Source: Neofusicoccum parvum
Lineage: Eukaryota; Ascomycota; Dothideomycetes; Botryosphaeriales; Botryosphaeriaceae
Direction of reading: 5' to 3'
NCBI GenBank assembly: GCA_020912385.1
Contig: CP087220.1
Location: 186,001 to 250,000 of the forward strand
DNA: 64,000 nt
Positions 39,463 to 39,493 of this stretch are shown here, one piece after another (position 1 is the first letter of the stretch; every line of letters starts with the position of its first letter). Both the position numbers and the translations under genes were made by a program. The notes beneath the pieces were generated by a model. It did no database searches, had not been told where the DNA came from, and saw only the letters and a program-made list of their open reading frames with translations.

Positions 39463-39493
<31 letters not shown>

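What the first reader, a model, noticed from the sequence alone, without database searches (positions are those of the whole stretch)
39465..39493. A 29-nt poly-C tract decides the reading frame of an NLR-like cell-death gene
The coding-strand tract codes for polyproline between a basic N-terminus and the esterase domain. With 29 C's the ATG frame runs into a stop about 20 codons later; with one base fewer (or two more) the whole esterase-NACHT-ankyrin protein of about 1,560 residues is open. Long mononucleotide runs are among the fastest-mutating sequences, so this could act as a reversible on/off switch for an allorecognition or immune receptor, similar in logic to bacterial contingency loci. 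The alternative is a homopolymer error in the assembly. Frame arithmetic is read directly; the switch idea is inference.
Basis: partly seen in the sequence, partly recalled or inferred. Interest (0 to 1): 0.85.

Follow-up and report, generated by a model that had tools for sequence, protein, structure and literature searches.

The report
Poly-C tract splits a fungal NLR gene
A run of 29 identical bases sits inside the first exon of a fungal immune-receptor-like gene and, as assembled, puts it out of frame; a close relative of the gene has no such run, so it looks like a recent accidental repeat expansion, or a miscounted one, more than a built-in switch.

Summary
Window 39465-39493 is exactly 29 G (poly-C on the coding strand), 45 codons after the ATG of a sesB-type esterase/NACHT/ankyrin gene; the ATG frame stops 20 codons past the tract, while the esterase frame is open behind it. 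A relative, P0242 (77% identical after the tract), reads both halves in one frame without poly-proline. So both flanks are coding and the tract is exonic. Comparison does not support a kept switch: 0 of 46 homologues compared, P0242 included, has a proline run there. The genome has 106 C/G runs of 18 or more; the 100 listed lie no nearer to HET or NACHT matches than chance, and the 62 read avoid coding flanks. A HET gene elsewhere is split likewise by 26 C; 4 of 5 paralogues keep both pieces in one frame. Most likely it is one of a genome-wide class of slippage-prone expansions, tolerated in a dispensable gene. Whether 29 is true, a miscall or one of several lengths needs reads. A selected switch stays possible (about 0.12).

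The parts
39465..39493 (-). 29-nt poly-C tract (poly-G on +), between codon 45 and the codons corresponding to QDLRP of the relative
   Evidence: alignment to P0242
39404..39628 (-). ATG-frame reading: 45-residue basic, Ser/Pro-containing N-terminus, prolines, 20 off-frame residues, then stop; 75 codons
   Evidence: residues 1-45 are 32 of 45 identical to P0242
39079..39462 (-). post-tract part of exon 1 in the other frame: linker and start of the esterase domain
   Evidence: post-tract frame 110 of 142 identical to P0242
39026..39078 (-). intron 1 (GTAAGT...GCTGAG), boundaries inferred by frame
38371..39025 (-). rest of the esterase (DUF676/PGAP1-like, HSLGG motif), with inferred introns 38638-38584 and 38514-38459
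38223..38370 (-). linker with inferred introns 38370-38306 and 38269-38223; other splicings possible
37618..38151 (-). NACHT/NPHP3_N nucleotide-binding domain (GKPGSGKST, VVDALDE)
34912..36264 (-). ankyrin-repeat region (approximate bounds); no tandem array called here at a score of 30
34669..38222 (-). last, long exon to the stop codon, open throughout

Best explanation
The tract is a lineage-specific expansion of a short C run in the Ser/Pro-rich linker of a sesB-esterase/NACHT/ankyrin NLR gene. It is one member of a genome-wide class of long poly-C runs in this Botryosphaeriales fungus. Shown: exon position, coding on both sides, absence from the one close relative found, and a frame break at the assembled length. 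Inferred: replication slippage made and keeps changing the tract; an off-frame allele gives a 75-residue peptide and no receptor; such tracts persist in exons only where loss of the gene is tolerated, as for accessory incompatibility-type genes. The gene is then passively unstable (null, or mixed among nuclei or isolates), not a selected switch.
For: P0242 joins both halves in one frame without poly-proline. 0 of 46 homologues compared (P0242 included) has 4 or more prolines in a row in the N-terminus. 106 C/G runs of 18 or more genome-wide; the 62 read (61 plus the window's) range from 18 to 47, with length classes mod 3 of 24/22/16. Coding flanks are under-represented at the 62: upper-quartile flank score 1.9 against 4.5 at 600 random points. 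Three runs between coding flanks lie in apparent introns (L050, L068, L071). A HET gene, C2:3816970-3816995, is split by 26 C: 307 open codons before, 430 after in another frame, while 4 of 5 paralogues matching both pieces carry them in one open frame. No excess of the 100 listed tracts near HET or NACHT matches. No spare copy seen: of 16 matches to the esterase in this genome, 5 are the gene itself and the other 11 are 25-48% identical.
Against: The post-tract codons are open in my model and the motifs intact, so any loss is very young, or the real allele is in frame. The length rests on one assembly. 44 of 106 tracts were not read. That slippage made the tract, and that the gene is dispensable, is not shown.
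Confidence: 0.45

Rival explanations
1. Assembly miscount: the tract is real but its length is wrong by a base or so, and the gene is in frame and expressed in this strain.
For: Everything else in the gene model is open. The two clear exonic tracts (window, HET) and two weaker ones (L039, L049) are all out of frame, 4 of 4 of those I recognised; random lengths would give that about 1 time in 5. A published Podospora NLR had a homopolymer deletion judged a misassembly in a long-read assembly (PMC12222747, passage seen).
Against: No reads available. Poly-A runs at about 2.5 or 4.7 kb from 16 of 18 left contig ends, and from 11 of 11 right ends whose contig length a call shows, suggest a near-complete assembly (with lengths), but this does not settle homopolymer accuracy.
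Confidence: 0.33
2. Selected contingency switch: tract length toggles the receptor on and off reversibly, letting some nuclei or spores escape incompatibility or autoimmunity, as in bacterial phase variation.
For: Position near the 5' end of the gene, so two of three length classes abort early. A HET-domain gene in the same genome shows the same arrangement. Homopolymer contingency loci have been proposed for fungi (PMC5614558, passage).
Against: Absent from P0242 and from the N-termini of all 46 homologues compared. No enrichment of the listed tracts near HET or NACHT matches. Of the three other apparent exonic tracts recognised, only one is in such a gene. No length variation shown.
Confidence: 0.12
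3. Fixed pseudogene: 29 is right and stable, and the gene is simply dead.
For: As assembled the ATG frame is aborted. The intron 1 acceptor that keeps frame is a weak GAG. Disrupted NLR alleles supported by reads occur in Podospora (PMC12222747, passage), and a table of candidate incompatibility genes of Aspergillus niger marks one as frame-shifted in three columns (PMC9258588, passage).
Against: No other stop or frameshift in about 4.5 kb of modelled coding sequence; a 29-base C run is unlikely to stay one length (recalled).
Confidence: 0.07
4. The tract lies in an intron or upstream of the real start, so it has no effect.
For: 17 GT-AG combinations would restore frame on paper; donors of some introns in my model of this gene are no better than the best of these; three other tracts do lie in apparent introns.
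Against: The 17 use only five donors, all weak (GTCTGA, GTCCGG, GTGGCG, GTTACC, GTTGTG), with no CTRAY branch-point motif in reach. P0242 is one open frame of genomic DNA across the site. In the downstream frame the first ATG comes only after the LFIHG stretch of the esterase.
Confidence: 0.03

Closest known systems
Fungal NLRs with sesB-like esterase / NACHT / ANK architecture (Dyrka et al. 2014, PMC4986451; passages seen)
   Same: Same three-part architecture; the paper lists SESB-LIKE NACHT ANK proteins and suggests that sesB-like domains may modify the plasma membrane on non-self recognition
   Different: Here the first exon carries a 29-nt poly-C run that breaks the frame as assembled; the variation in the passages seen is in repeat domains, and no tandem array was called in these ankyrins
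Long mononucleotide repeats in fungal coding sequences (van Passel and de Graaff 2008, PMC2621210; abstract and section 7 read)
   Same: 298 runs of 15 or more in 294 fungal transcripts, biased to the first quintile, 80 of them G or C, some transcripts with runs over 30 nt
   Different: The parts I read do not describe a run that breaks an otherwise open NLR gene, and name no Botryosphaeriales
Proposed homopolymer contingency loci, Cryptococcus deuterogattii (PMC5614558; passages seen)
   Same: Slippage in coding homopolymers inactivates genes; reversion of inactivating mutations was seen; contingency loci are suggested
   Different: The tested run is 7 C and instability is tied to a mismatch-repair defect; here the run is 29 and no variation was shown
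Bacterial phase-variable genes (search listing and abstract starts only; otherwise recalled)
   Same: Coding homopolymer whose length sets the frame
   Different: No evidence here of variation, reversibility, conservation or enrichment in a gene class

Membership tests
Fungal sesB/NACHT/ANK NLR | N-terminal alpha/beta-hydrolase (sesB-like) domain | tested here: met
   DUF676 27.6 bits over a cut-off of 20.3; PGAP1 23.9, just under its 24.3
Fungal sesB/NACHT/ANK NLR | NACHT-type NTPase domain | tested here: met
   NPHP3_N 110.1 bits over 24.8; NACHT itself 26.6, just under its cut-off 26.7
Fungal sesB/NACHT/ANK NLR | C-terminal repeat domain | tested here: met
   Ank_2 316 bits, nine stretches
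Fungal sesB/NACHT/ANK NLR | Single continuous coding sequence | tested here: not met
   Frame broken at the tract as assembled; continuous over exon 1 in P0242
Fungal sesB/NACHT/ANK NLR | Role in non-self recognition or cell death | not testable with these tools
   Needs genetics
Contingency (phase-variable) locus | Simple repeat in the coding region whose length sets the frame | tested here: met
Contingency (phase-variable) locus | Repeat length varies among cells or isolates at high rate and reversibly | not testable with these tools
   No reads or other isolates held
Contingency (phase-variable) locus | Repeat kept in orthologues | tested here: not met
   Absent from P0242, the one close relative found, and no proline run of 4 or more in the 46 N-termini compared, P0242 included; orthologues in named Botryosphaeriales were not found
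Contingency (phase-variable) locus | Repeats concentrated in a functional gene class | tested here: not met
   100 of 106 tracts against 150 scored HET matches (of 267 candidates) and 96 NPHP3_N matches: 3 within 2.5 kb (one is the window's own), 2.6 expected; the split HET gene is not among the 150, so power is limited
Long coding mononucleotide repeat of fungi | Run of 15 or more in a coding exon, in the 5' part of the gene | tested here: met

The most novel reading that the evidence does not exclude
In this fungus poly-C runs in the exons of self/non-self genes (this NLR and the HET gene on C2) act as fast, reversible on/off elements, so that a mycelium holds nuclei with live and silent incompatibility receptors: a eukaryotic contingency system.
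Probability: 0.12. Interest if true: 0.85.

Novelty: new member of a known kind. Interest (0 to 1): 0.42.

Why it matters
If the lengths really vary, this would be a natural case of homopolymer-driven switching of immune-type receptors in a eukaryote, and a cheap test of whether fungi have contingency loci. If not, it is a warning that long poly-C runs can make NLR and HET genes look broken, or be mis-annotated, in good assemblies. Either way, two named loci and one tract class make the question testable with sequencing reads.

Tried and rejected
Intron explanation: enumerated GT-AG introns of 40-259 nt that would join the frames; 17 found, all with weak donors by a rough score of mine. On that same score the donor of intron 4 of my own model (GTTAGA) would be no better than the best of them, so this test alone is weak; P0242 is the stronger evidence. 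Conserved-switch idea: 46 homologues, no proline runs. These 46 are what remained of 123 proteins (120 listed, plus P0242-P0244) after dropping those whose esterase match was weaker than E 1e-39 or started after residue 45; P0243 and P0244 were dropped by that cut (their N-termini, read, show no proline run either). Targeting of tracts to incompatibility genes: no excess. A basic N-terminus as a family mark: only 19 of 46 have net charge +4 or more in the first 25 residues, so the N-terminus rests on P0242. Full-length orthologue search: none close among the 120 of 1730 hits listed (best esterase match about 42%). Diversification by near-identical ankyrin repeats: none called. Literature searches on fungal homopolymers, contingency loci and incompatibility genes listed no report of this case; only open-licence papers are searched and I saw listings, abstracts or passages, so this is no proof of absence. 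(yeast mononucleotide instability) and the passages of PMC8905617 yielded nothing used.

Full report
WHAT IS THERE. The window is part of contig 15 (186001-250000) of an unnamed 44.0 Mb, 18-contig genome. A phosphoketolase exon in the window is 91% identical to Diplodia seriata and 88% to Aplosporella prunicola, so the organism belongs with the Botryosphaeriales (order recalled); no tool names the species. On the minus strand, 39628 to 34669, lies a gene with five inferred introns (39078-39026, 38638-38584, 38514-38459, 38370-38306, 38269-38223) whose post-tract part encodes 1505 residues: a DUF676/PGAP1-like esterase, an NPHP3_N/NACHT domain and ankyrin repeats. The motifs HSLGG, GKPGSGKST and VVDALDE are present. 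This is the sesB/NACHT/ANK kind of fungal NLR (PMC4986451, passages seen).

THE TRACT. 29 G on the + strand, 39465-39493, confirmed to the base.

THE DECISIVE COMPARISON. A search with the post-tract exon reading (142 aa) returned 4 proteins among 8 candidates. The best, P0242 (191 aa, from a 1,073-base contig of unnamed origin), aligns without gaps to the window's pre-tract frame (32 of 45 identical, its residues 1-45) and to the post-tract frame (110 of 142 identical, its residues 47-188), with one residue between. The alternative upstream frame and the off-frame continuation align only at noise level. P0242 reads on into what corresponds to intron 1, so it looks like a translation of unspliced genomic DNA, and no intron separates the halves there. 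Thus both flanks are coding, the tract is exonic, and the relative has an uninterrupted exon without poly-proline. None of 46 homologues (P0242 included), out of 123 proteins examined with cuts on E-value and alignment start, has four or more prolines in a row in the N-terminus. The tract is therefore most simply a gain on this lineage.

THE GENOME BACKGROUND. The genome has 106 C/G runs of 18 or more (100 places listed), 149 of 13 or more, six of exactly 29, and 88 A/T runs of 18 or more, at least 27 of them at a near-fixed distance from contig ends. I read 61 tracts on contigs 1-10, taken in listed order and not by content, plus the window's own. Lengths run from 18 to 47, classes modulo 3 are 24, 22 and 16. 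A codon-usage scan, trained on 43 long open frames, shows that tracts avoid places with coding on both sides: median and upper-quartile flank scores 1.1 and 1.9, against 1.6 and 4.5 for 600 random points in the window and the 20 longer loci. Of the nine non-window tracts that passed a score cut and were read by eye, L050, L068 and L071 are in apparent introns; L045 (HET gene), L039 (NmrA-like) and L049 (AAA-like) in apparent exons; L034, L048 and L058 I take as doubtful or noncoding. The three exonic ones, like the window, are out of frame. L039 and L049 are weak cases: in L039 the piece behind the tract matches NmrA only from profile position 35 and the short piece before it matches nothing, and in L049 the frame seems to break once more. 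That the tracts below the cut are not exonic is my reading of scores, not annotation.

A SECOND CASE. The HET gene at C2 around 3.817 Mb is split by 26 C: 307 open codons lead to the tract in one frame and 430 follow in another. The part behind the tract starts a HET domain (50.1 bits); the part before has no Pfam match. Searched apart in the same genome, the two pieces fall in one open frame in four paralogues (C2:3813167-3814027, 801 codons; C2:3791963-3792739, 925; C12:1251791-1252657, 610; C6:517099-517914, 682). A fifth, at C2:3819165-3819929, does not hold them in one open stretch.

IS IT A SWITCH? Against a selected switch: absence from the relative, no proline runs in the homologues compared, and no excess of tracts near HET or NACHT matches (3 of 100 tracts within 2.5 kb, one being the window's own, 2.6 expected; 5 against 5.1 within 5 kb). 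That test used 150 scored HET matches of 267 candidates and 96 NPHP3_N matches, estimated lengths for some contigs, and missed the split HET gene itself, so its power is limited. For a switch: two split genes of incompatibility type, both otherwise open; but leaving out the window as the starting point, only 1 of 3 other exonic tracts is in such a gene. Published work already proposes homopolymer contingency loci in fungi (PMC5614558, passages) and records long runs biased to the 5' part of fungal genes (PMC2621210, abstract and one section). It also records a homopolymer deletion judged a misassembly in a Podospora NLR, next to a truly disrupted allele (PMC12222747, passages).

VERDICT. The mechanism I favour is passive: a genome-wide tendency to poly-C expansion, tolerated in exons of dispensable receptor genes, giving null or unstable alleles. 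The second most likely reading is a miscounted run in a working gene. Only reads can decide between them.

Noticed in passing
G000:C2:3814900-3818600 (L085, L045, L086): A HET-domain gene split by 26 C into two frames (307 open codons before, 430 after), with related HET genes between about 3.79 and 3.82 Mb of the same contig
   Followed up: yes
Whole genome G000: 106 C/G runs of 18 or more, up to 47 in the 62 read, beside only 43 of 13-17
   Followed up: partly
G000, about 2.5 or 4.7 kb from contig ends: Poly-A runs of 18 or more at near-constant distance from 16 of 18 left ends and 11 of 11 right ends of known position, oriented alike: probably a shared subtelomeric element and a near-complete assembly
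   Followed up: no
L039, tract at 4489-4509: NmrA-like gene where a 21 C tract seems to sit in place of expected residues and breaks the frame
   Followed up: partly
L049, tract at 504-524: AAA-ATPase-like gene with a 21 C tract out of frame and an apparent second break
   Followed up: partly
L068, L071, L050: Long C tracts inside apparent GT-AG introns of open genes
   Followed up: partly
window 60461-63001: HET-domain gene with a ZZ zinc finger about 21 kb from the NLR gene; both lie in stretches of lower G+C (about 0.48-0.50) than most of the window
   Followed up: no
Whole genome G000: Large HET (150 matches scored of 267 candidates) and NPHP3_N (96 matches) repertoires
   Followed up: no
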